64,000 bases of DNA from Chryseobacterium sp. W4I1 (lineage in GTDB: Bacteria; Bacteroidota; Bacteroidia; Flavobacteriales; Weeksellaceae), in NCBI RefSeq assembly GCF_030816115.1, contig NZ_JAUSXQ010000001.1, forward strand, positions 2,294,001 to 2,358,000, written 5' to 3'. The notes below the pieces were generated by a model. It searched no databases, was not told where the DNA came from, and was given only the letters and a program-made list of their open reading frames with translations. Positions 47,784 through 59,699 of the stretch are shown piece by piece. Both the position numbers and the translations under genes were made by a program. Within the stretch, counting starts at the first letter, position 1, and every line of letters starts with the position of its first letter.

Positions 47784-48965
47784 TCAGTTTCCCAGATTAT
47801 TATTCTTTAAAAACTCCTCTATTTTATTCCATTCAATCTGTCCGGCAATAGAATTGGAATTGGCATCAAAAACGTGTTCACCATAAGGAATTTCAACATA
47901 AGAGACAGGAAGCTTCAATTCTGTGGCTTTTTTCACAAATGTTCTTGTAGCTTCTACATTGACTACATGATCTATTTCTCCGGCAATAATGAATGTAGGG
48001 GAAATGCCTTTGGAAAGCTGGTCTATTAAATTCAGCTGGGCATAGCGCTGTGGAAATTCGGAAGGTGAACCTCCGAGATATCTTCTTGCTGCGTATTTGA
48101 GATCGATATTCTTTTTCTCATCTATTTTCTGCCAGAGCTCGGATAAGCTGACAGGCGGATAAATCGCAATAACTCCTGCCGAAACCGGAGGCTGTGGGGA
48201 ATCATAAGATTTAGCAAAACCTTGTCTCAATCCTAAATCTGCCTGCATCACCAAAGCTGCTCCCGCAGAACCACCTACCAAAACTATTTTGTTTGGGTCA
48301 ACATTGAATTTTTTTGAATTTTTCACAACGAACCCCATTGAAGTCACTACAGAATTAACCGCAGATTCCCAGTTGTGCCGGTCTTCTTTTCCTAAAGGAT
48401 AATCTATGGAAAAAACGGTATATCCATGATCTTTAAACCAATTGGCAGCATAACCAACCTGAGTTCTGTTTCCTTCAATAAAAGCACCCCCGTGAACAAG
48501 AATAACAGGAATTGCAGGTGATGAAGATCTTTTTTCCGGGCGGAAAACATCTATATGCTGTTCTTCATTATAAATAGTGAGATAAGAATACGTTTCGGTA
48601 GGTTTTATAGGCTCTTCATGCCCTTTTAATCCCTGAGAAAAGGAAACTTTGGCATTGTATTTTTTAGCCGTGGAAAACATAACCACTGTGAAAAAAAACT
48701 GGGCAATGAAAAAAAGAACCGAAAGGATCAGGTTAACAATCAGTAATTTCCGCCAATATTTCCCATATCTATAGAAAAGAAAACAGATAATGATCAATAC
48801 CAGGCTCAAAACAACAAACTGCGAATTGAACTGCATAGCAAACGAACTGCTGTAACCGCTCAGAAGCATGGGTGCTTTCAGATACACTGAAATCATAGGA
48901 ATAACCAATAAAATCAGGATGATGAACAGTAAAATGGCTAAGAATATATTTAAATTTTTTTTCAT
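47784..48965 (-). CDS. membrane-anchored alpha/beta hydrolase (HSL/carboxylesterase type), 393 aa
   Basis: Three N-terminal hydrophobic helices (about 7-28, 46-66 and 73-95) precede a carboxylesterase domain. It has the oxyanion motif HGGAFIEGN, the nucleophile elbow VGGSAGAAL, Asp in AGEIDHVVNV and the catalytic His in YGEHVFD. The membrane anchor is unusual for this family and places the enzyme at the inner membrane. It is the last gene of a four-gene operon with the TonB receptor upstream by 4 bp. Confidence 0.85.
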   Translation of the reverse strand: MKKNLNIFLAILLFIILILLVIPMISVYLKAPMLLSGYSSSFAMQFNSQFVVLSLVLIIICFLFYRYGKYWRKLLIVNLILSVLFFIAQFFFTVVMFSTAKKYNAKVSFSQGLKGHEEPIKPTETYSYLTIYNEEQHIDVFRPEKRSSSPAIPVILVHGGAFIEGNRTQVGYAANWFKDHGYTVFSIDYPLGKEDRHNWESAVNSVVTSMGFVVKNSKKFNVDPNKIVLVGGSAGAALVMQADLGLRQGFAKSYDSPQPPVSAGVIAIYPPVSLSELWQKIDEKKNIDLKYAARRYLGGSPSEFPQRYAQLNLIDQLSKGISPTFIIAGEIDHVVNVEATRTFVKKATELKLPVSYVEIPYGEHVFDANSNSIAGQIEWNKIEEFLKNNNLGN

Positions 48966-48969
48966 GATA

Positions 48970-51631
48970 TTAAAATTTATAGGTTACCGTAACATACCCG
49001 GAAGTCGGCGGAATGGCAATGGTAAAATAAGGAGTATTATTGGCAACCGCAGAAGCGTATTCGGCCTGGGTAAAGTTTTCGAAGCCTGCAAGTTGCTGCT
49101 GAAGAGTTCCCGGTCTCTGGTAGCTCATCACCCCATATTTGTTAAATACATTATTCACATTCACAAGCATACTGAGATTTTCATTTACATTATATCCTAT
49201 TCCAAGGTCGAACTGGGAAAATCCCGGCAGTTTGTAGACATTGGTATTGCTGCCCTCCCTTTTACCCATATAATTCCAGGTTACAAATCCGAATGCCTTA
49301 CCGATTTTCAGATTAGGAGTTACATTAGCCATAATTTTTGGTGTATAGGCTATGGTGGTTCCTGAATATGAAAACACAGTATCATCAGCAGGGCCAGGCG
49401 CGCTTCCGAGGTTCCATAGATACCCTTCTTTCACTTTCGGGTCCTGCAATGTAAGCACCGCCCTTATGCTGAAGTTGTCGGCAGGCCTGATGTTGGTTTC
49501 CAATTCAATACCATAGGTTTCATTCTTATTATACAATGATGGAGTGGTGTAAAACCCGCCTTTTCCGTCATCTGCCATAAAGCTGTAAGGAACATTGCTC
49601 AGCAAACTGTAAAATGGTGTTATAAAAGCATCAAAATAAGTTGTTTTCGTCTTAAATCCCATTTCCACCTGCTGGGTTTTCCTGGATTGAGGATCTAATA
49701 GATCTATGGTTTCCGGTCTGTTGGCTGCAAAGAACATATCAAGATCCGGAGATTTGCTGCCTTTTGAATACCTGGCATATACGGCAACATTATTATTGAA
49801 TTTATAATTCAACGCTGCCGAATAGGAAAAGTTCTCCAACTGTCTGCTATAACCAACATTTGTAAGTTTTGTCAAAGCATTGTTATTGTAAAGGGTATAA
49901 ATGCTGCCATCCGTACCGCCGTTTTTATCTGAAAACAAATAGGTTCGGGTATTATCTCCTTTGATCCATACTTTTTCATACCGTATTCCCCAATCCAGCG
50001 TCAGATGATCTGTAATGTCCCACGTATGCCCAAAAAACACGGCTCCCTGTTGCTGTTTAGCCTTGAATTCAATTAAATCTCCCGTGCTGCCTGCTGCCTG
50101 TGCAAAACCGTCATTATTGGTCAGCTGATATACACCGGGTTTTGTAAAGTCTAAAGTGGTAACCCCTGTTAAACTTAAGGTCATCATTCTTGGACGGTTC
50201 TCTAAGGTGGTAAGTCCTATCCCATTGATTCCGGAAAATCGCCATACATCGGAATAGCCGTAATAGCCGCCAAATGAGAAATTCATATTGTTCCATTTTT
50301 TATTAATGGTCAGCTGGTTCATAGATTCCTTCACCTTATTTTCATAAAAATTAAGAGCTGACATTAAAAATGAATTATTTTGAATAGACTGACCCGGCAA
50401 CTGATTCTTGGTGATCTGGTAAACAGGTAATCCACCGGCTCCCGGGGCAGCATTCACACTGGCAAGTTCTTGCCCTGTAAGCGCATCTTTAAAGGAATAG
50501 GTTCCCACTCCCAGTCCGCCGACCAAAAAATAAGAGGTCAAATCATCCAGCGAGGTAAGAAAAGAATTTCCTACGCTGTTCTGCACCACATCATTATCAG
50601 AATATTTGCTTGCCAGGAACAGCTTCCATCCATTTCCAAGATTATGGTCCCAGTTGAGTCCTATGGAGCGGTATTTATTGCTAACCAGACGGCCTGAATT
50701 ATAATCTATATTCCCGCCATGAATAAAATCCGGAGAATTGTATTGTAATTTCGGAATCAGCAAAGACGAGCTGCTGCTGAATCCTTCTGCCGGTTCGGGG
50801 TTTGAATAATTTCTTGTAGGAACCAACTGAGCATAGCCATTTTTGTCATCAAGATATTTTAGAAATACTTTTAAACTTCCTTTATTGTATTTTTTGACAA
50901 TATTTGCTTTTACCTGTCCACCATTATTGAACGGATAGCCTGCATATCTTGCTCCTAAATCGTACCGGTAAAATCCTCCGATATTAAAAAACCAGTTATC
51001 TCCCAAAGGACCTCCAAAGTTGGCATCCATTCTATGATATCCTGAGTTATCTGCCCCCTGAACGCCATATTTAGCCCGGATTTCACCACCGAATTTATTG
51101 CCGCCCGTTTTAGAAATATAATTGAAAATTCCACCCGGTGCATTAGCAGCCGTAATAGAAGCAGGACCTCCTCTCACCGCATCAATCTGGGAAATAGTGG
51201 CATCTGCTCTCAGAAAAAAGTCAGGCCCGTAATTATAATAGGTGGTATTGGTTACCGGTAAACCATCTTCCTGCATAGAGATATACTCATAAGCAAAAGT
51301 ACCGTCTGAAGAACCTGCACTGATTCCTCTTGAGCTTACATTATTTCTGATCTCTCCCAAGGATGAATTCACATAAACTCCCGGAACATTTTTAAGCAGG
51401 TCTGCAGCACTGTTGGGAACCTGTTTTTCAATGACGTCGCTTTTCAGAACAGAGATTGCGACCGGGGCATTCATTCTTGTCCTTTTAATCAAATACCCCG
51501 GTCATGATCACCTCATCAATATCTTTTGTTTTCGTTGTGTCAGCTTCCTTTTTCTGGGCTGTTACATTGGAAAAGGCTGCCAGGAAAAGTACGGCTACCG
51601 TAATTTTTGTATTTAAAAATGTAGTTTTCAT
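48970..51631 (-). pseudogene. TonB-dependent outer-membrane receptor, frameshifted near N-terminus
   Basis: Siderophore-type (not SusC-type) receptor. The ATG at 51631 gives a signal peptide (MKTTFLNTKITVAVLF, ending VTAQ) and the TonB box KDIDEVIMTGVFD, then stops. The rest (APVAISVLKSDVIEKQ, plug, and a 22-strand barrel ending YVTVTYKF) lies one frame over from about 51490. Dropping one T in GATTAAAAGG gives GVFDKRTRMNAPVAISV and an unbroken 886-residue protein. It has no carboxypeptidase-like domain and no SusD partner. It is cotranscribed with two esterases and an acyl-CoA ligase. Confidence 0.87.
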
Positions 51632-52528: not shown

Positions 52529-54052
52529 CTAGTTTTTTAAGTTCTTTTTAAGTATTTTTCCTGTTGCGCTTAATGGCATTTCATCTATAAATTCTATGAT
52601 TCTCGGATATTTATATTTGGCAATTCTTTCTTTTGTCCATAACTTAATATCTTCTTCGGAAGCCTTGCTTTCTTTTTTCCTTACTACAAATGCTTTAATT
52701 TCTTCCCCGAGTTTTTCATCTTCGATCCCGATAACGGCTACCATGGAAATATCAGGATTTCTCATCATCATTTCTTCTACTTCCCGCGGATAGACATTCA
52801 TTCCGCCTCTGATAATCATTTCTTTTTTACGGTCGACAATGAAGAAAAACCCGTCTTCATCCTTTACGGCAATATCTCCGGAAAACATCCATCCGTTTTT
52901 CAAAACTTCCTCAGTTTCTTTAGGTTTTCTGTAATAAGATTTCATCACATTGGGGCCACGATAGATCAATTCTCCTTTTTCACCGACCGGCAGTTCATTG
53001 CAGCGATCATCTACAATCTTAACATCAACACCCCAGATAGGCGTTCCGATAGAACCGGGCTTCCTTCCTGTTTTCAACTGGTTAAATGTCACTACAGGAG
53101 AGCCTTCGGACATCCCATAACCTTCAATGATCGGAACTCCGAAGCTATTTTCAAATTCATCAATGATTTTTACAGGAAGAGAAGCCCCACCGGAAACACA
53201 GATTCTTAATTTTTTAATGCTATTGGTATTTTCTTCGGTATTGTCTTCATTCAGAAGTGCCCAATACATAGAGGGAACACCTGCAAAAATTCTGATATCA
53301 AAATGAGGAATAAGCTGGTAAACTGTTTTTGCATCGAATTTTGACAAAAGGACAAGATGGAGTGATCTCCGGATTCCTGCAAGCATCATTACCGTTAAGC
53401 CAAAAATGTGAAATAATGGTAAAACTACAAGCTGGGCCTCAAATTCAGCAGAAGCAATGATGGTTGTGCTGGCTTCTGCATTGGTAAAAAGATTAATATG
53501 CGAAAGCTCCGCTCCTTTCGGTTTTCCTGTGGTTCCGGAAGTATAAATAATAACGGCTGTGTCTTCTGAGGAAGTCATATAAGATTCAAAATCTGCTTTT
53601 TCATTCATGATGAGATTATCAAAATTCTCTACATCATCTGCTAAATTTCCAATACTTATAAAATCTCTGCATGATGGTGTCTTATCAAAGCCTTCCTTAC
53701 CGAATTTCCCTGTTGGGAGTTCCGGAGTTCCGGCAAAACAGAAGAACATTGTACTGTCGGAATCGGAAAGGTGATAAGTGATTTCTTCAGGTTTGAGAAA
53801 GATACTGAGCGGAACCACAGTTGCCCCAGCCTTTAATATTCCGAAAAAAACAATTGGGAACTGAAGAATATTAGGGCAGAGTAAGGCAACCTTATCACCA
53901 TGACCTATTCCTTTTTTTGTAAGTGCATGAGCAGTCTGGCAGACTTTTTCATGAAATATTTTATAGCTTAAAGTAGTTTTATCAAGACTTAAAGCTGGTT
54001 TTTCAGGATTTCTTTTTGCAATTTGTTCTACTAAAATAGATAAGTTAAGCAT
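52529..54052 (-). CDS. long-chain acyl-CoA ligase / AMP-dependent synthetase, 507 aa
   Basis: ANL-superfamily adenylating enzyme. The P-loop-like motif TAVIIYTSGTTGKPKGAEL, the A5 motif EGYGMSEGSP, the A8 hinge region DIAVKDEDGFFFIVDRKKEMI and the C-terminal catalytic Lys in SATGKILKK are all present. No signal peptide is seen, so it is cytoplasmic. It activates a carboxylic acid, most likely a fatty or aromatic acid, with CoA. As first gene of the esterase/TonB operon it could activate the acid released by the esterases. An AraC-type double operator lies upstream at 54163-54197. Confidence 0.9.
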   Translation of the reverse strand: MLNLSILVEQIAKRNPEKPALSLDKTTLSYKIFHEKVCQTAHALTKKGIGHGDKVALLCPNILQFPIVFFGILKAGATVVPLSIFLKPEEITYHLSDSDSTMFFCFAGTPELPTGKFGKEGFDKTPSCRDFISIGNLADDVENFDNLIMNEKADFESYMTSSEDTAVIIYTSGTTGKPKGAELSHINLFTNAEASTTIIASAEFEAQLVVLPLFHIFGLTVMMLAGIRRSLHLVLLSKFDAKTVYQLIPHFDIRIFAGVPSMYWALLNEDNTEENTNSIKKLRICVSGGASLPVKIIDEFENSFGVPIIEGYGMSEGSPVVTFNQLKTGRKPGSIGTPIWGVDVKIVDDRCNELPVGEKGELIYRGPNVMKSYYRKPKETEEVLKNGWMFSGDIAVKDEDGFFFIVDRKKEMIIRGGMNVYPREVEEMMMRNPDISMVAVIGIEDEKLGEEIKAFVVRKKESKASEEDIKLWTKERIAKYKYPRIIEFIDEMPLSATGKILKKNLKN

Positions 54053-54162
54053 AGTTGATGTTCACATTACGTTAATATTGATATGGAATCCCTTTAACCA
54101 AGGCAGTTTCCATATAAACTAATCTTAACTCCAAATTAATGATAACGAGAACAGGTGCTGAC

Positions 54163-54197
54163 ACGAAAAGGAAATTCCGTGATACGAAAAGGAAATT
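54163..54197. promoter_or_regulatory. direct-repeat operator (two 14-mers, 21-bp period), copy 1
   Basis: ACGAAAAGGAAATT occurs at 54163-54176 and again, identically, at 54184-54197, giving a 21-bp period, two helical turns, as is typical of AraC-family sites. It lies 111 bp upstream of the acyl-CoA ligase start codon. A one-mismatch -7 element (54132-54139) lies 24 bp downstream in the direction of transcription. The same paired motif occurs at 57612-57646. Confidence 0.75.
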
Positions 54198-54280
54198 TTT
54201 TTAATAGTGTATAAAAATACAAAATCTGTAAACGCTTTTACAGACTGCGTTTACATGATTGTACGGAAAGGTGTTTAATT

Positions 54281-55156
54281 TTACAAACGTTCTTCAGAGG
54301 GAAGTTTTCCGAAGTAACGGAGATAGAGCTGGGAAAAATGCCCGCGGTTATTATAGCCGATAAAATCGCTGATCTCACCAACGGATTTTTCGGTTTCCAA
54401 AAGCATAGATCTGGCCATCTCCATTCTGGCTTTAATAATATATTGATGGATAGGCAACCGGGTATAATCTTTAAATCCTTTTTTAAGATCACTGCTGTTG
54501 AGTCCGCAATAACGGCTTATTTCTCTGATGGCCAGACTCTGGAATGCATTGGTATCTACAAAATCTTTCGCCAGTTTTATTTTGTCTTCAAATGCTTTTT
54601 TGTGTTCAAATGTTTTCTCATCAGAAAGAAGGTAATGAATCCAGTAGCTTAGGAATTCCAGAATTCTGCTTTCGAGGATGATGCTGCAGGATGCGTCATC
54701 AAACGGGGTATCGAAAATAGTTTTGAGTTTTTCCTGGCTCAGGTAATTGCGCTGTGCATTTTCCAGCTTCTCTTTCAGCAGTCCGTTATCTTTCGGAAAA
54801 ATACTTTTCGGAACAAAAATCCTTACCCCATCTATATCGGTAGTATTGTGCTCAAATTCTTTTTCGTTGTTGATGAAATTACTGCTGATCTTTCCTTCTT
54901 TATTGATGCGGAAATCCATCATTCCGTTATCCCCTACTTTATGGGGTGAATGGAAAATGGTGTCTTCCTGAAAGTTCCATTTTCCACGGAAAAAATGAAA
55001 ATTCTTTTTACTGAAAAGAATCAGCTTCCCGCTTCCCAAATCCTCCGGCATTTCCAGAACAGTAGAGTTCAGAAAATCTGTATCACAAAATCTGTAATCC
55101 TGAATCAGACCTTGTTTAAAACCATCTGACTCCAGGTAAGGAAGAAGCAATTCCAT
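54281..55156 (-). CDS. AraC family regulator, PchR-like, 291 aa
   Basis: Soluble AraC/XylS regulator with no membrane segment. An N-terminal sensory region of about 180 residues precedes the DNA-binding domain at about 190-291, with IREISRYCGLNSSDLKKGFK and IGYNNRGHFSQLYLRYFGKLPSEE. The overall length and helix pattern resemble PchR-type regulators. It lies just upstream of the operon with the acyl-CoA ligase, TonB receptor and esterases, and next to the double operator. It is therefore the leading candidate to bind that operator. Confidence 0.85.
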   Translation of the reverse strand: MELLLPYLESDGFKQGLIQDYRFCDTDFLNSTVLEMPEDLGSGKLILFSKKNFHFFRGKWNFQEDTIFHSPHKVGDNGMMDFRINKEGKISSNFINNEKEFEHNTTDIDGVRIFVPKSIFPKDNGLLKEKLENAQRNYLSQEKLKTIFDTPFDDASCSIILESRILEFLSYWIHYLLSDEKTFEHKKAFEDKIKLAKDFVDTNAFQSLAIREISRYCGLNSSDLKKGFKDYTRLPIHQYIIKARMEMARSMLLETEKSVGEISDFIGYNNRGHFSQLYLRYFGKLPSEERL

Positions 55157-55220
55157 AAAAACGGTAATTTGTTGGGATGTAAGTTAACAAAATTTTAAAA
55201 CATGACAAATATCATGTATT

Positions 55221-56351
55221 TTACTTAAAGATATGCTGGGTAAACTGGTAAAGAGATCTTCTCCAGGTAAGCCATTCGTGGCGGGTTTCCGGAGATTTAT
55301 ACTGGAAATAAGGATAATTATTCTGGCTTAAATAAGTAGTCAAAATTTGGTTAAATTTAAAAAACAGCGCATCTTCTTTTTCCCCGATTCCGATAAAGAA
55401 GTAAGGTTTTTTCTTGGATTTCAATAAATTACCAATCGGAAGCTCTTTAAAAGGTTCAGCTTCCGTTCCTTCATAGATCACAGGACTGAACGCTCCGATG
55501 GCTGAAAATATTTCAGGATGATTAACCCCGATAAACATCGCCTGATAACTTCCCCGGGAGAGTCCTGCAATAGCTTTTTTACCTGTAGTTCTATATTTTT
55601 TTTCAATATAGGGAATCAGTTCTCCGGTAACAACCTTATCCAGGTTTTTGGTGGAAATAACAGTTCTGGGATAATTGTCCGGCATCTTTTCCTGTTCAGG
55701 ATTCAATGCTACACCGTAATCCATCACTACGATCATTTCCGCAGCTTTCTTTTCGGCAAAAAGATTATCCAGAATATGAAGGATATAACCCTGTTTTTCC
55801 CATCCTGTAATATCTTCTCCGGTTCCGTGGTACAGATATAAAACAGGTAGCTTTTTAGACCCGTAATTTGGTGGAAGATATACTTTAAAGTTTCGTTTAC
55901 CTTGTGTTATTTTTGAATTCAGACTATCGTTAATAATTTTTCCGTGCTTTACATTTTTCTCCAGAAAAAAATTTTCCCCGGAAGGAACCTCAATTCCACT
56001 GGTTGGCTGGCTGTACCCGAAATACAGCTGTGTGTTGGGATCATTGGTTCGTTTTCCATCCACATTCAGCCAGTAGTAATGAAAACCTATTTCCATGGGT
56101 GAAGTTGAGATATTCCAAAAACCGTCATGATCTTTGGAAGCAGAGGATTTTATACTTTTCATTCCATCTCCTCCATCTAAGGTTACAGATTGGGCATCCG
56201 GAAAGTAAACCCGAAACTGTGCTTTTTTATCAGAATCTATTTTCGGAAATTCTTTTCCCGGCAATAGCGTTGAAGCCGGTTTGTAGGTTTGGGAAAATAC
56301 AGTGGAAGATAACAAAAGGAAGCCTAGTAGTATTTTTGGTGAGTATTGCAT
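55221..56351 (-). CDS. secreted esterase (enterochelin esterase/esterase D-like), 376 aa
   Basis: A signal peptide ending TVFSQ is followed by an immunoglobulin-like E-set domain (about 38-110, QFRVYFPDAQSVTLDGGDG) and an esterase D-like hydrolase domain, with YLYHGTGEDITGW, the nucleophile Ser in AGLSRGSYQAMF and the catalytic His in RHEWLTWR. This layout occurs in IroE/Fes-like and feruloyl-esterase-like (CE1) proteins, so the substrate may be a siderophore or a polysaccharide ester. It stands between the AraC gene and another esterase. Confidence 0.83.
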   Translation of the reverse strand: MQYSPKILLGFLLLSSTVFSQTYKPASTLLPGKEFPKIDSDKKAQFRVYFPDAQSVTLDGGDGMKSIKSSASKDHDGFWNISTSPMEIGFHYYWLNVDGKRTNDPNTQLYFGYSQPTSGIEVPSGENFFLEKNVKHGKIINDSLNSKITQGKRNFKVYLPPNYGSKKLPVLYLYHGTGEDITGWEKQGYILHILDNLFAEKKAAEMIVVMDYGVALNPEQEKMPDNYPRTVISTKNLDKVVTGELIPYIEKKYRTTGKKAIAGLSRGSYQAMFIGVNHPEIFSAIGAFSPVIYEGTEAEPFKELPIGNLLKSKKKPYFFIGIGEKEDALFFKFNQILTTYLSQNNYPYFQYKSPETRHEWLTWRRSLYQFTQHIFK

Positions 56352-56552
56352 TATTTAAGTTTTAAAAGGTAAGAATTCAGTAATATCTTATAGCCTGGCG
56401 ATATTTTGAAGACTGTATATTAAGCTGTAATCACAGTCAGTATCACAAAGTTTTAATCAATATTAAGAAAAATATTTTTCTTTGCTGTTAATCAGGTGAT
56501 GCTGTGGTCCTGTATTTAATCCATGTCCAGATAAATTCTACAGCACTGTAGT

Positions 56553-57548
56553 TTATTTAAGAAACTGCTTCATCATTCTCAGCGTAATCTCCATATTTTC
56601 CGGAAGAGGCATTCCGTGGGCATAGCCTGTAGAAACATGTAACTCAGTAAAAATGCCTGCTTTGATCAGACGGTCTGCATAAGCCAGCCCACTGTCCCGT
56701 AAAGGATCTGCTCCGGCTACAAAAATTACGGATGGAGGAAGGTTTGAAACATCTTTGATATTTCCGGGCAGCACATATTTTTCTTTTGAGTTCCCATTTT
56801 TCCCGATATAAAAATCCTTTAAAATTGGAAAATCATCGCTTTTAAGTCCTGGGACTTTTTTAAATTCAATAACTGATGGATAGTTCATCCCGAAATCACC
56901 CGGAGGAATTTCCAGAACCTGCAAACTGATTTTAGGACCTTTCTGATCTCTTGAATATTGTGCCAGGCTTCCGGATATACCAGCTCCAGCACTGGAGCCA
57001 CCCACGGCAATGAGTTTTGGATTTCCACCTATATTTTCTGCATTTTTATTTGCCCACAACAATGAGGCATAAGCATCATGAAGCGCAGCAGGAAAAGGAT
57101 ATTCCGGAGCGAAACGGTAATCTACATTGATCACGACTGCATTTCCCTTCAATGCATAATCTGCACATCTCTGATGATCCCATTTAGGTGTTCCATACAC
57201 GAAACCACCTCCATGGAACCAAAGAAATATGGGAAGATCTTTAGCATTTTTAGGTTTGTAAATTGTTACGGGGATTTCAGGATCTTTTGAATTTAACCCT
57301 GGAATTTTAGACTGAATCACGTCAACACTGTCTTTATTCTTCAGTTCTGGCCAGGACATTTCTGCCTGGATTTTGCGTTCTTTTTTTACTTCGTCAAGTG
57401 TAATATCCTTAATCGGACTATTAATCATTGACCTGAACTGGGGCAGCAACCTTTTTTCTGCTTCCTGAAGGCTAAGGGAATGGTATTGCTGTGCAAATGA
57501 TAAACCCGAGATCAGGAAAAGTATTAAAAACAACAGGTATTTTTTCAT
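56553..57548 (-). CDS. secreted alpha/beta hydrolase, HSL-type esterase, 331 aa
   Basis: Signal peptide ending SFAQ. The hormone-sensitive lipase-type motif WFHGGGFVYG carries the oxyanion hole. The nucleophile is Ser in VGGSSAGAGIS, with Asp in AGADPLRD and the catalytic His in GYAHGMP. It would hydrolyse short-chain esters in the periplasm. A -7 element at 57580 and a double AraC-type operator at 57612-57646 lie upstream, which ties this gene to the operon at 47784-54052. Confidence 0.88.
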   Translation of the reverse strand: MKKYLLFLILFLISGLSFAQQYHSLSLQEAEKRLLPQFRSMINSPIKDITLDEVKKERKIQAEMSWPELKNKDSVDVIQSKIPGLNSKDPEIPVTIYKPKNAKDLPIFLWFHGGGFVYGTPKWDHQRCADYALKGNAVVINVDYRFAPEYPFPAALHDAYASLLWANKNAENIGGNPKLIAVGGSSAGAGISGSLAQYSRDQKGPKISLQVLEIPPGDFGMNYPSVIEFKKVPGLKSDDFPILKDFYIGKNGNSKEKYVLPGNIKDVSNLPPSVIFVAGADPLRDSGLAYADRLIKAGIFTELHVSTGYAHGMPLPENMEITLRMMKQFLK

Positions 57549-57579
57549 AATAATAGTATTATATCGAACTCTATTCTTT

Positions 57580-57587
57580 CAAAAGTA
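57580..57587 (-). promoter_or_regulatory. -7 promoter element of HSL-type esterase gene
   Basis: In the minus direction this reads TACTTTTG, matching TAnnTTTG. It is 32 bp from the start codon and 25 bp downstream of the double operator. No -33 box is seen, which fits activator-dependent transcription. Confidence 0.6.
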
Positions 57588-57611
57588 ATATTATGCTTAC
57601 CACCGGATGAC

Positions 57612-57646
57612 ACGAAAAGGAAATTTTGTGATACGGAAAAGAAATT
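57612..57646. promoter_or_regulatory. direct-repeat operator (two 14-mers, 21-bp period), copy 2
   Basis: ACGAAAAGGAAATT (57612-57625) and ACGGAAAAGAAATT (57633-57646) repeat with a 21-bp period, as at 54163-54197. The bases between the half-sites (GTGAT) are also the same. It lies 64 bp upstream of the esterase start codon. Confidence 0.75.
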
Positions 57647-58840: not shown

Positions 58841-59699
58841 TTAATTTTTCAACTGCTTCCGGAAGGCAGCAGCTGTCATGCCCTTATGCTTCTTAAACTG
58901 CCTGCTTAAATGGCTTTCATCAGAAAAGCCTAAATCATCTGCAATTTGTCCTATTGAATAGTCACTGTAGAGCAGCCGCTGTTCAACAAATATTCATTTT
59001 ATACTGGGTGAGATAACAGTGTAAACTATCTCCTGTAAGATTTTTAAAATATTCACCGATATAATTGGCAGAGAGATTAAACTGTTCTGCAAGATGCTTT
59101 ATCCTTAAATTTTTAGGACAGTGTATTTGCTGATGCAGATAAACCAGTATTTTATTGATCAAAGGTTCATCCATCGTTGTATCTGATACAATTTGCTGGG
59201 GATTGACATTCCGGGCAATAATATTTAAAACAAGAATTACCAGATGCTGTAGATTTTCATCAAAATAGGAAGGTTTATCGTTGTATTCTACGAGCATATT
59301 TTCGATCAATGAAGAAATCATGTCACAATCTCTCGGCTCTTTAATCAGAACCTGCTCAAAGCGGTTGTGATGTGTAAAAATAGCTTCCAACTGTTTCAGC
59401 CATAGCAGAACTTTCTCTTTTTCATTTTTGGTTTTGTACTGTTCAAGAAAAACTTCAGAAAAACGGATGGAACAATACCGTGTATTTGTAGTACTCTCAA
59501 AACCTCTGCAATCTAATGGGGTAAATAAAAAAATGCTCCCCTTACGGTATGGAAACTTGTTTTCATTGATAATCCTGGTACCTTCCCCTTCTATGATCTG
59601 CACAATTTCGAAGAACTGGTAGATCAGGGGACGTTCATTCCAGTGTTCCATATCTGAGACAAATATATCCAAAGGTTTATATAGATGCTTCGTTTTCAT
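58841..59699 (-). pseudogene. AraC family regulator, frameshifted between its two HTH units
   Basis: A cupin-like N-terminal domain (about 25-150) precedes an AraC DNA-binding domain. The first helix-turn-helix, HLAEQFNLSANYIGEYF, is in the first frame, which ends YKMNIC at 58983. The second unit, IGQIADDLGFSDESHLSRQFKK, lies one frame over and ends at 58841. Removing one T from ATATTTGTTG joins them as KMNIVEQRLLYSDYSIG and gives a full 285-residue protein. It diverges from the Old Yellow Enzyme gene, 77 bp apart, and probably controls it. Confidence 0.85.

What the first reader, a model, noticed from the sequence alone, without database searches (positions are those of the whole stretch)
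54163..57646. Shared double operator with 21-bp period links TonB/esterase operon and a distant esterase
ACGAAAAGGAAATT is repeated at 54163 and 54184 (identical) and at 57612 and 57633 (second copy with two changes). The period is 21 bp in both places. Each site lies 24 to 25 bp upstream of a -7-like element (54132-54139 with one mismatch, 57580-57587 exact) on the minus strand. AraC-family activators bind such direct repeats. The AraC gene at 54281 is adjacent to the first site. The result would be a regulon of acyl-CoA ligase, TonB receptor and three esterases.
Basis: partly seen in the sequence, partly recalled or inferred. Interest (0 to 1): 0.72.

Follow-up and report, generated by a model that had tools for sequence, protein, structure and literature searches.

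The report
Twin AraC switches controlling esterase cassette
Two matching pairs of short DNA repeats sit in front of two neighbouring gene groups and most likely let one regulator protein, itself made by one of these groups, switch on uptake and breakdown of an unknown ester compound; the control layout is a known type, but here it seems to travel between species as one package.

Summary
Observation confirmed. ACGAAAAGGAAATT forms 21-bp-period pairs at 54163/54184 and 57612/57633 (last copy with two changes), the only two such pairs (<=3 mismatches) in the 4.62-Mb genome. The AraC reading is supported, with corrections: the "distant esterase" heads a same-strand row hsl-esterase-araC; the other pair fronts CoA ligase-esterase-TonB receptor-esterase. 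So araC probably controls its own row, and four hydrolases are involved, not three. Of 148 genus genomes, all 12 with an araC ortholog carry exactly two pairs; 9 of the other 136 match, with 8 of their 10 sites in long open frames, one in front of a decayed hsl and one not examined. A -7-like box lies at one fixed distance in 29 of 29 operators. In distant relatives, 14 of 18 (controls 0 of 27) have a 21-bp direct repeat at the araC 3' end; one also has a second pair fronting an esterase row that leads to araC. Cassette and gyrB trees conflict, suggesting transfer. The 21-bp geometry is known for AraC-type regulators in Bacteroides (PMC3870299, PMC3878776). Binding, activation and inducer are inferred.

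The parts
54159..54197 (-). P2 double operator: half-sites AATTTCCTTTTCGTATCA (distal) and AATTTCCTTTTCGTGTCA (proximal) in promoter orientation, 21 bp apart
   Evidence: same place in all 15 araC-bearing loci
54131..54139 (-). P2 -7-like element (TAATTTGG or TTAATTTG, each 5 of 6 to TAnnTTTG)
   Evidence: spacing
54227..54255 (-). hairpin between araC stop and P2, possible terminator of the hsl-fae-araC transcript
   Evidence: fold -16.0, z -3.9 in the window; weaker or absent in most relatives; not listed by the scan, whose loop limit of 8 excludes its 11-base loop
57608..57646 (-). P1 double operator: AATTTCTTTTCCGTATCA (distal) and AATTTCCTTTTCGTGTCA (proximal), 21 bp apart
   Evidence: present in 14 of 15 loci, absent with hsl/fae in G231
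57580..57587 (-). P1 -7 element TACTTTTG, exact TAnnTTTG
56553..57548 (-). hsl: alpha/beta hydrolase (PF07859, hormone-sensitive-lipase type)
55221..56351 (-). fae: PF00756 esterase (enterochelin/feruloyl esterase type)
54281..55156 (-). araC: AraC-type regulator, 291 aa, C-terminal HTH_18, beta-rich N-terminal part in the predicted model
52529..54052 (-). acsl: AMP-binding CoA ligase; two best solved relatives are named feruloyl-CoA synthetase and fatty-acyl-CoA synthase, with nearly equal scores
51645..52523 (-). BD-FAE-type esterase (PF20434)
48970..51631 (-). TonB-dependent receptor; signal peptide and body in different frames in this assembly
47784..48965 (-). est1: BD-FAE/Abhydrolase_3 esterase with a hydrophobic N-terminal part

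Best explanation
The two repeat pairs are operators P1 and P2 of the AraC-type regulator encoded at 54281-55156. Two subunits of the regulator, each with two HTH motifs, bind the same face of the DNA two helical turns apart (21 bp), with the proximal half-site ending 24 bp upstream of the Bacteroidota -7 box, where a -33 element would lie, and activate transcription. P1 drives hsl-fae-araC (positive autoregulation); P2 drives acsl-esterase-TonB receptor-esterase, possibly after a terminator hairpin behind araC. Together they form a self-regulated, probably horizontally moving cassette for import and hydrolysis of an acylated compound, with CoA activation of the released acid. SHOWN by computation: the repeats, their uniqueness in the genome, co-occurrence with araC, fixed spacing, and the 21-bp repeat beside most distant araC relatives examined. 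INFERRED: binding by this AraC, activation rather than repression, autoregulation, co-transcription, and the substrate class.
For: Only two paired sites in the genome, control 0. In 148 genus genomes, 12 of 12 araC carriers have exactly two pairs and 9 of 136 others have a match (Fisher p about 2e-12, ignoring kinship). Of those nine genomes' 10 sites, 9 were examined: 8 lie in open frames of 317 codons or more, and 1 (G073) precedes a decayed hsl (53% over 51 aa). Operators average 1.75 (P1) and 1.84 (P2) bits per column against 0.32 and 0.77 in the 70 bp upstream. A -7-like box (5 or 6 of 6) lies 26 nt from TTTTC in 29 of 29 operators, and 27 nt (>=5 of 6) in 21 of 21 loci of distant relatives (in L084 another box scores equally). 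14 of 18 distant relatives outside the profile alignment have the 21-bp repeat at the araC 3' end, against 0 of 27 control AraC loci and 0.13 loci expected from shuffles. One distant relative (G417; 1 of 17 scanned over 13-19 kb) has the twin layout too: a second pair 4.7 kb before araC, fronting a PF00756 esterase in a same-strand row that leads to araC, with a 5-of-6 -7-like box again 27 nt away. The HTH1 recognition helix (LKKxFK) is largely kept and HTH2 differs between the two groups; the 5' part of the half-site (CTTTTC) is shared and the 3' part differs. Where an extra gene of 430-431 aa lies behind araC, P2 stays with the ligase gene (G027, G050, G146, G126). The other AraC-type gene (58983) is absent from the fetched stretch in 10 of the 15 loci that carry the operators, so it is a poor candidate.
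Against: No experiment. The P2 -7 box is imperfect (5 of 6) in all 15 loci, and in most of them TTAATTTG one base nearer scores equally. No -33 element was established. The 29 operators hold only 7 distinct P1 and 7 distinct P2 sequences, were picked by a pattern (<=4 mismatches), and the 60 bp downstream are also conserved (1.25 and 1.47 bits), so the contrast is mainly with the upstream side. The sites travel within a cassette, so co-occurrence with araC is partly simple linkage. 4 of 18 relatives fall below the repeat threshold; they show weaker repeats only with a consensus derived from the same loci. Among 8 further loci from the phylum search, 4 have no such repeat behind araC and one (L156) has period 20, not 21. 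Period 21 is also the commonest period in control AraC loci when counted anywhere (9, against 8 for period 42), so the period is a family habit. Seven of the 14 positive relatives are from one genus.
Confidence: 0.83

Rival explanations
1. The repeats are operators of the AraC protein, but it acts mainly as a repressor (or as activator at one promoter and repressor at the other).
For: The genes may be induced by a substrate either way; the proximal half-site reaches the region where a -33 element would lie.
Against: Operators lie upstream of the -7-like box at one fixed distance in all 29 places, as expected of an activator that contacts RNA polymerase; no half-site overlaps the -7-like box. 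Transcription starts are not mapped.
Confidence: 0.1
2. Another regulator of the genome (for instance one of the many other AraC-type or hybrid two-component proteins) binds the pairs; the araC at 54281 is a bystander.
For: The genome has 72 HTH_18 matches, and direct repeats about 21 bp apart are predicted for hybrid two-component systems in Bacteroides.
Against: In the genus set, paired sites outside coding frames were seen only with this araC or as a relic (9 of 10 other sites examined); distant relatives with different target genes keep a repeat beside araC.
Confidence: 0.05
3. The similarity of P1 and P2 is only the trace of a promoter duplication and recent transfer, with no selection on the repeats.
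For: P1 and P2 also share bases such as AGCATA between operator and -7 box in most genomes (by eye); the cassette is probably horizontally moved; downstream bases are conserved as well.
Against: In the diverged lineage (araC 79-81%, hsl 72-74% identity) the repeats stay while upstream flanks change; within each operator the two half-sites match at 21-bp spacing.
Confidence: 0.02

Closest known systems
AraC-family regulators with 21-bp-period direct repeats in Bacteroides (RhaR motif, PMC3870299; HTCS motifs averaging 21 bp, PMC3878776; passages seen)
   Same: Direct repeat of two sites two helical turns apart, upstream of catabolic genes in Bacteroidota; AraC-type HTH.
   Different: Other regulators and targets (sugar/glycan genes; HTCS are hybrid kinases); no pair of operators shared by the regulator's own gene row and the neighbouring one described in the passages seen.
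AraC I1-I2 and XylS Pm sites (recalled; no paper read on them)
   Same: Two direct half-sites 21 bp apart, proximal one next to or overlapping the -35 region; HTH1 contacts the upstream part, HTH2 the promoter-proximal part.
   Different: Sigma-70 type promoter instead of the Bacteroidota -7 box; different half-sites and effectors.
MtlR of Pseudomonas fluorescens (PMC4514859, passages seen)
   Same: Two similar direct 15-bp blocks (-72 to -58 and -50 to -36, i.e. 22-bp period) upstream of -35; shown by EMSA and footprinting.
   Different: Different target operon and phylum.
PchR-like AraC proteins (source names of some hits: activator of pyochelin receptor)
   Same: Profile relatives carry this name in source databases; TonB receptor gene in the cassette.
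   Different: No gene recognised as iron or siderophore specific among the cassette proteins scanned; relatives lie beside NmrA-like or DUF5367 genes.

Membership tests
AraC/XylS family transcription regulator | C-terminal AraC-type HTH domain | tested here: met
   PF12833 1e-15, residues 214-290; AraC-domain chains such as 3oio by sequence and by fold, TM 0.85 on the target
AraC/XylS family transcription regulator | N-terminal effector/dimerisation domain of known fold | tested here: inconclusive
   No Pfam match over residues 1-210; model mean pLDDT 76.9 with strands between residues 24 and 116; full-length alignments to Rns, CsvR and ToxT but TM 0.3 and rmsd about 22-25
AraC-type direct-repeat operator | two tandem half-sites about 21 bp apart | tested here: met
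AraC-type direct-repeat operator | fixed position just upstream of the core promoter (class II-like) | tested here: met
   -7-like box 26 nt from TTTTC in 29 of 29; transcription start not mapped
AraC-type direct-repeat operator | binding by the cognate protein | not testable with these tools
   needs EMSA or footprint
PchR-type siderophore regulator | responds to a ferric siderophore and controls its receptor | not testable with these tools
   only database names
Feruloyl/aromatic ester utilisation locus | feruloyl-type esterases, aryl-CoA ligase and a CoA-dependent side-chain degradation gene | tested here: inconclusive
   esterases and a CoA ligase present; no hydratase/aldolase family among the ten window proteins scanned; substrate unknown

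The most novel reading that the evidence does not exclude
Across Bacteroidota, one AraC subfamily carries its double operator (about TTCTTTTCRAACAAATC twice, 21 bp apart, then TAnnTTTG) at the 3' end of its own gene as a built-in promoter for whatever gene follows. In the Chryseobacterium group, and independently in at least one distant relative (G417), a second operator stands in front of an esterase-led gene row that leads into araC, making a positive-feedback switch. In the Chryseobacterium group this switch took control of a horizontally transferred import-and-hydrolysis cassette for acylated (possibly hydroxycinnamoylated) glycosides, to which GH3 and GH2 enzymes were added in one lineage.
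Probability: 0.4. Interest if true: 0.55.

Novelty: new member of a known kind. Interest (0 to 1): 0.42.

Why it matters
It turns a sequence impression into a regulator-operator pair with a consensus, a geometry and a regulon that can be tested directly. It gives a rule (look for a 21-bp direct repeat at the araC 3' end, 26-27 nt before a -7 box) for predicting targets of a whole AraC subfamily. It also points to a self-regulated cassette that appears to move between Chryseobacterium-like species, possibly with plant-derived esters as substrate.

Tried and rejected
Wider regulon in the own genome: with <=3 mismatches no third pair; single half-site matches are at or below control level. araC2 (58983) as the binder: rejected because it is absent from the fetched stretch in 10 of 15 operator-bearing loci (the G129 stretch is short on that side), and the window copy lacks its HTH. 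Plasmid origin of the cassette: no match in the plasmid collection in 'near' mode, which sees only closely related DNA. Sigma-70-type promoters: scan at shuffle level, 23 against 21.5. A terminator behind araC: the 70 bp upstream of P2 fold with z <= -3.5 (100 mononucleotide shuffles) in 6 of 15 loci, against 0 of 14 for P1, but with z above -1 in 4 of the 15, so it stays tentative. Iron/siderophore function from the TonB subfamily hit: scores lie below the curated cut-offs. My first idea that the second operator is an addition of the Chryseobacterium group alone was dropped after a wider scan of 17 of the 18 distant loci found one more twin layout (G417); L081 was left out of that scan. Papers: none in the held library joined feruloyl-CoA synthetase, feruloyl esterase, TonB and AraC, or AraC, Chryseobacterium, direct repeat and operator, or Chryseobacterium, feruloyl, TonB and acyl-CoA, or named DUF5367; the other searches were read as listings, except passages of PMC3870299, PMC4514859, PMC7366714 and PMC3878776. 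The fold search with the AraC model gave no effector: its matches at E <= 0.001 are mainly named AraC-family proteins or parts of them.
Full report
OBSERVATION. The window is part of a single-contig 4.62-Mb genome; of the 10 named loci with an araC ortholog, 8 are labelled Chryseobacterium, one Elizabethkingia sp. and one a Weeksellaceae MAG. In the own genome the pair pattern with up to 3 mismatches occurs at exactly these two places, control pattern 0. Single half-sites elsewhere are at or below control frequency (11 against 24; 21 against 36), so the pairing and not the 14-mer is the signal.

ANATOMY. All cassette genes lie on the minus strand. P1 (57608-57646) fronts hsl (PF07859), fae (PF00756) and araC (HTH_18); P2 (54159-54197) fronts a CoA ligase, a BD-FAE esterase, a TonB receptor and a second BD-FAE esterase. 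Gaps are 201 and 64 bp in the first row, 228 bp between araC and the ligase, and 5, 13 and 4 bp in the second row. The two best solved relatives of the ligase, with nearly equal scores, are named feruloyl-CoA synthetase and fatty-acyl-CoA synthase. Upstream of P2 the strand can fold into a hairpin in the window and some relatives, which may end the araC transcript; the terminator scan did not list it, its loop limit being shorter than this loop.

CONSERVATION. An araC ortholog (E <= 1e-40) is present in 15 of 320 genomes of the family. In the 148 genus genomes scanned for the pair, 21 match: the 12 that have araC carry exactly two pairs each, and 9 of the other 136 carry 10 sites in all (that the 148 are all within the 320 is inferred from the handles). 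I examined 9 of these 10 sites (the second G101 site had no locus): 8 lie inside open frames of at least 317 codons, and one, in G073, is intergenic in front of a decayed hsl (53% identity over 51 residues) in a genome without an araC ortholog, i.e. a relic of the cassette. Fisher's test on 12/12 against 9/136 gives 2e-12, without correction for kinship. Gene maps of all 15 loci show P2 in 15 and P1 in 14; G231 lacks hsl, fae and P1. In G027, G050, G146 and G126 a gene of 430-431 aa on the other strand lies between araC and P2, and P2 stays with the ligase. Ungapped stacks give 1.75 (P1) and 1.84 (P2) bits per column in the operators against 0.32 and 0.77 in the 70 bp upstream and 1.25 and 1.47 in the 60 bp downstream; each stack holds only 7 distinct operator sequences, and the sites were picked by a pattern. 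Pooled half-sites (58 from 29 operators) read AATTTCyTTTTCGTaTCA; 9 of 18 columns are invariant or have a single exception.

PROMOTER GEOMETRY. In 29 of 29 operators a -7-like box with 5 or 6 of 6 matches to TAnnTTTG starts 26 nt after TTTTC of the proximal half-site (14 P1 boxes 6 of 6, 15 P2 boxes 5 of 6; in most P2 sites TTAATTTG one base nearer scores equally). TAnnTTTG is the primary-sigma -7 consensus of B. fragilis; the -7 part was confirmed in Flavobacterium johnsoniae, the -33 part was not identified there (PMC7366714, passage seen). With TAATTTGG as the P2 box both promoters have 24 bp between box and repeat. The repeats thus end about where a -33 element would lie, as for class II AraC-type activators (recalled).

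THE SUBFAMILY. An order search with the single protein found, outside the Chryseobacterium group, only three weak relatives (genus g35, which I take to be Flavobacterium from names), each with a 21-bp direct repeat at its araC stop. A five-row profile then gave 28 hits of at least 137 bits in 395 genomes, 21 of them outside the Chryseobacterium group (L069-L089). Of the 18 of these that are neither profile rows nor L071 (L072-L089), 14 have a period-21 repeat (at least 13 of 17) within -60 to +120 of the araC stop. Of 27 control AraC-domain genes none does; one control (L101) has a shortened flank, so its stop was placed wrongly, but it has no such repeat anywhere. Shuffles of the same stretches give 0.13 expected loci. 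Counted anywhere, controls also have 9 period-21 repeats, their commonest period, so 21 bp is a family habit and the 3'-end position is what marks the subfamily. The 14 come from seven genera, seven of them from one genus and two from another. With a consensus taken from these loci (circular for the score), all 21 have their best pair at the araC stop, and a -7-like box with at least 5 of 6 lies 27 nt after TTTTC in 21 of 21 (in L084 another box scores equally). A phylum search (19 of 395 genomes) added eight loci not seen before: L157 and L160 have the repeat by the 13-of-17 rule (at -2 and +111 from the stop), L164 has a weak one by eye, L156 has a similar one by eye with period 20, and L161, L162, L163 and L165 have none behind araC; L161-L163 have another 21-bp repeat upstream of araC. 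Genes following araC differ: NmrA-like, DUF5367, small secreted proteins.

TWIN LAYOUT ELSEWHERE. I scanned 13-19 kb around araC in 17 of the 18 distant loci and had 20 kb for three more. Besides the pair at the araC stop, only G417 shows another pair of score 25 or more among the 17: 4.7 kb before araC, intergenic, fronting a PF00756 esterase in a same-strand row (esterase, glyoxalase-like, nitroreductase and others) that leads to araC, with GACCTTTG (5 of 6) exactly 27 nt after its TTTTG. So a second operator in front of an araC-containing row occurs in 14 of 15 Chryseobacterium-group loci and 1 of 17 distant loci. This weakens an earlier thought that it is unique to the Chryseobacterium group and supports the wiring itself.

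PROTEIN. The HTH1 helix keeps LKKxFK in most members, while HTH2 reads NNRGHFSQLY in 14 of 15 Chryseobacterium-group proteins and (E/D)SLSSFSNAF in most others; the half-sites share the 5' part CTTTTC and differ in the 3' part. This fits the recalled AraC/XylS arrangement in which HTH1 reads the upstream and HTH2 the promoter-proximal box. A predicted model (40-row alignment, mean pLDDT 76.9, pTM 0.52) has a beta-rich N-terminal part and the AraC-type DNA-binding domain; the best fold matches are AraC-family proteins, the full-length ones (Rns, CsvR, ToxT) with TM about 0.3, so the sensor fold is not settled.

MOBILITY. G087, G103 and G109 have gyrB 95.4-95.7% identical to the window genome but araC 79-81% and hsl 72-74%, while G201, of another genus, has gyrB 90.4% and araC 94.2%. 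Approximately-unbiased tests reject the gyrB clade {G012, G050, G004, G129, G231} on the ligase (p 3.9e-6) and TonB trees (2.8e-4), and the ligase clade on gyrB (2.4e-4); the clades were named after seeing the trees and the gyrB bootstrap had not settled, so these are indications. Flanking genes differ between groups of genomes. No near plasmid match.

MECHANISM AND FUNCTION. Most likely the regulator, on binding an unknown effector, occupies both half-sites of P1 and P2 and activates; P1 makes more regulator. Depending on the genome the cassette encodes a TonB-dependent receptor, two to four esterases and a CoA ligase; four loci (G109, G103, G087, G231) add a GH3 enzyme, and G109 a GH2 enzyme, with an ORF of the same length and place in G103. 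Import and hydrolysis of an acylated glycoside, with CoA activation of the released acid, is therefore a reasonable but unproven guess; hydroxycinnamoyl esters are one candidate from the BD-FAE/PF00756 esterases and one of the ligase's nearest solved relatives, fatty acyl esters another.

COMPARISON. Direct repeats with 21-bp periodicity are reported for AraC-family rhamnose regulators including Bacteroides (PMC3870299, passages), and for hybrid two-component regulators of B. thetaiotaomicron (average 21 bp, PMC3878776, passages). The operator kind is therefore known; this regulator, half-site, 3'-end position and twin-operator wiring were not found in the searches made, which cover open-licence papers only and were mostly read as listings.

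Noticed in passing
window 48970-51631 (minus): The TonB receptor's signal peptide and its plug/barrel lie in different reading frames in this assembly, while the 14 other loci have one frame; an assembly error or a broken gene.
   Followed up: partly
window 58983-59699 (minus): A second AraC-type gene is 238 aa and lacks the HTH that its 304-aa relatives have (HTH checked in L005).
   Followed up: partly
L005 10914-12206 (similar in G050, G146, G126): A 430-aa protein without any Pfam match is inserted between araC and P2 on the opposite strand, divergent from P2.
   Followed up: no
L061 10028-10311 (genome G073): An operator pair with two mismatches remains in front of a decayed hsl in a genome without the araC ortholog: a relic of a lost cassette.
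   Followed up: yes
L057, L058, L059, L011: A GH3 enzyme (777 aa) lies behind the TonB gene in these four loci; in L057 a GH2 beta-galactosidase-like enzyme (1027 aa) lies between hsl and fae, with an ORF of the same length and place in L058.
   Followed up: partly
L175 4364-4427 (genome G417): A second double operator of the distant-relative type, 4.7 kb before araC and in front of a PF00756 esterase row, with a -7-like box at the usual distance.
   Followed up: yes
L161, L162, L163: Another AraC type has a different 21-bp direct repeat (AAAACGGATTATTATTTTG-like) about 250 bp before the matched part of araC.
   Followed up: no
L057 12569-13460 in araC orientation (genome G109): The BD-FAE esterase is split into two overlapping frames in this relative.
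   Followed up: no
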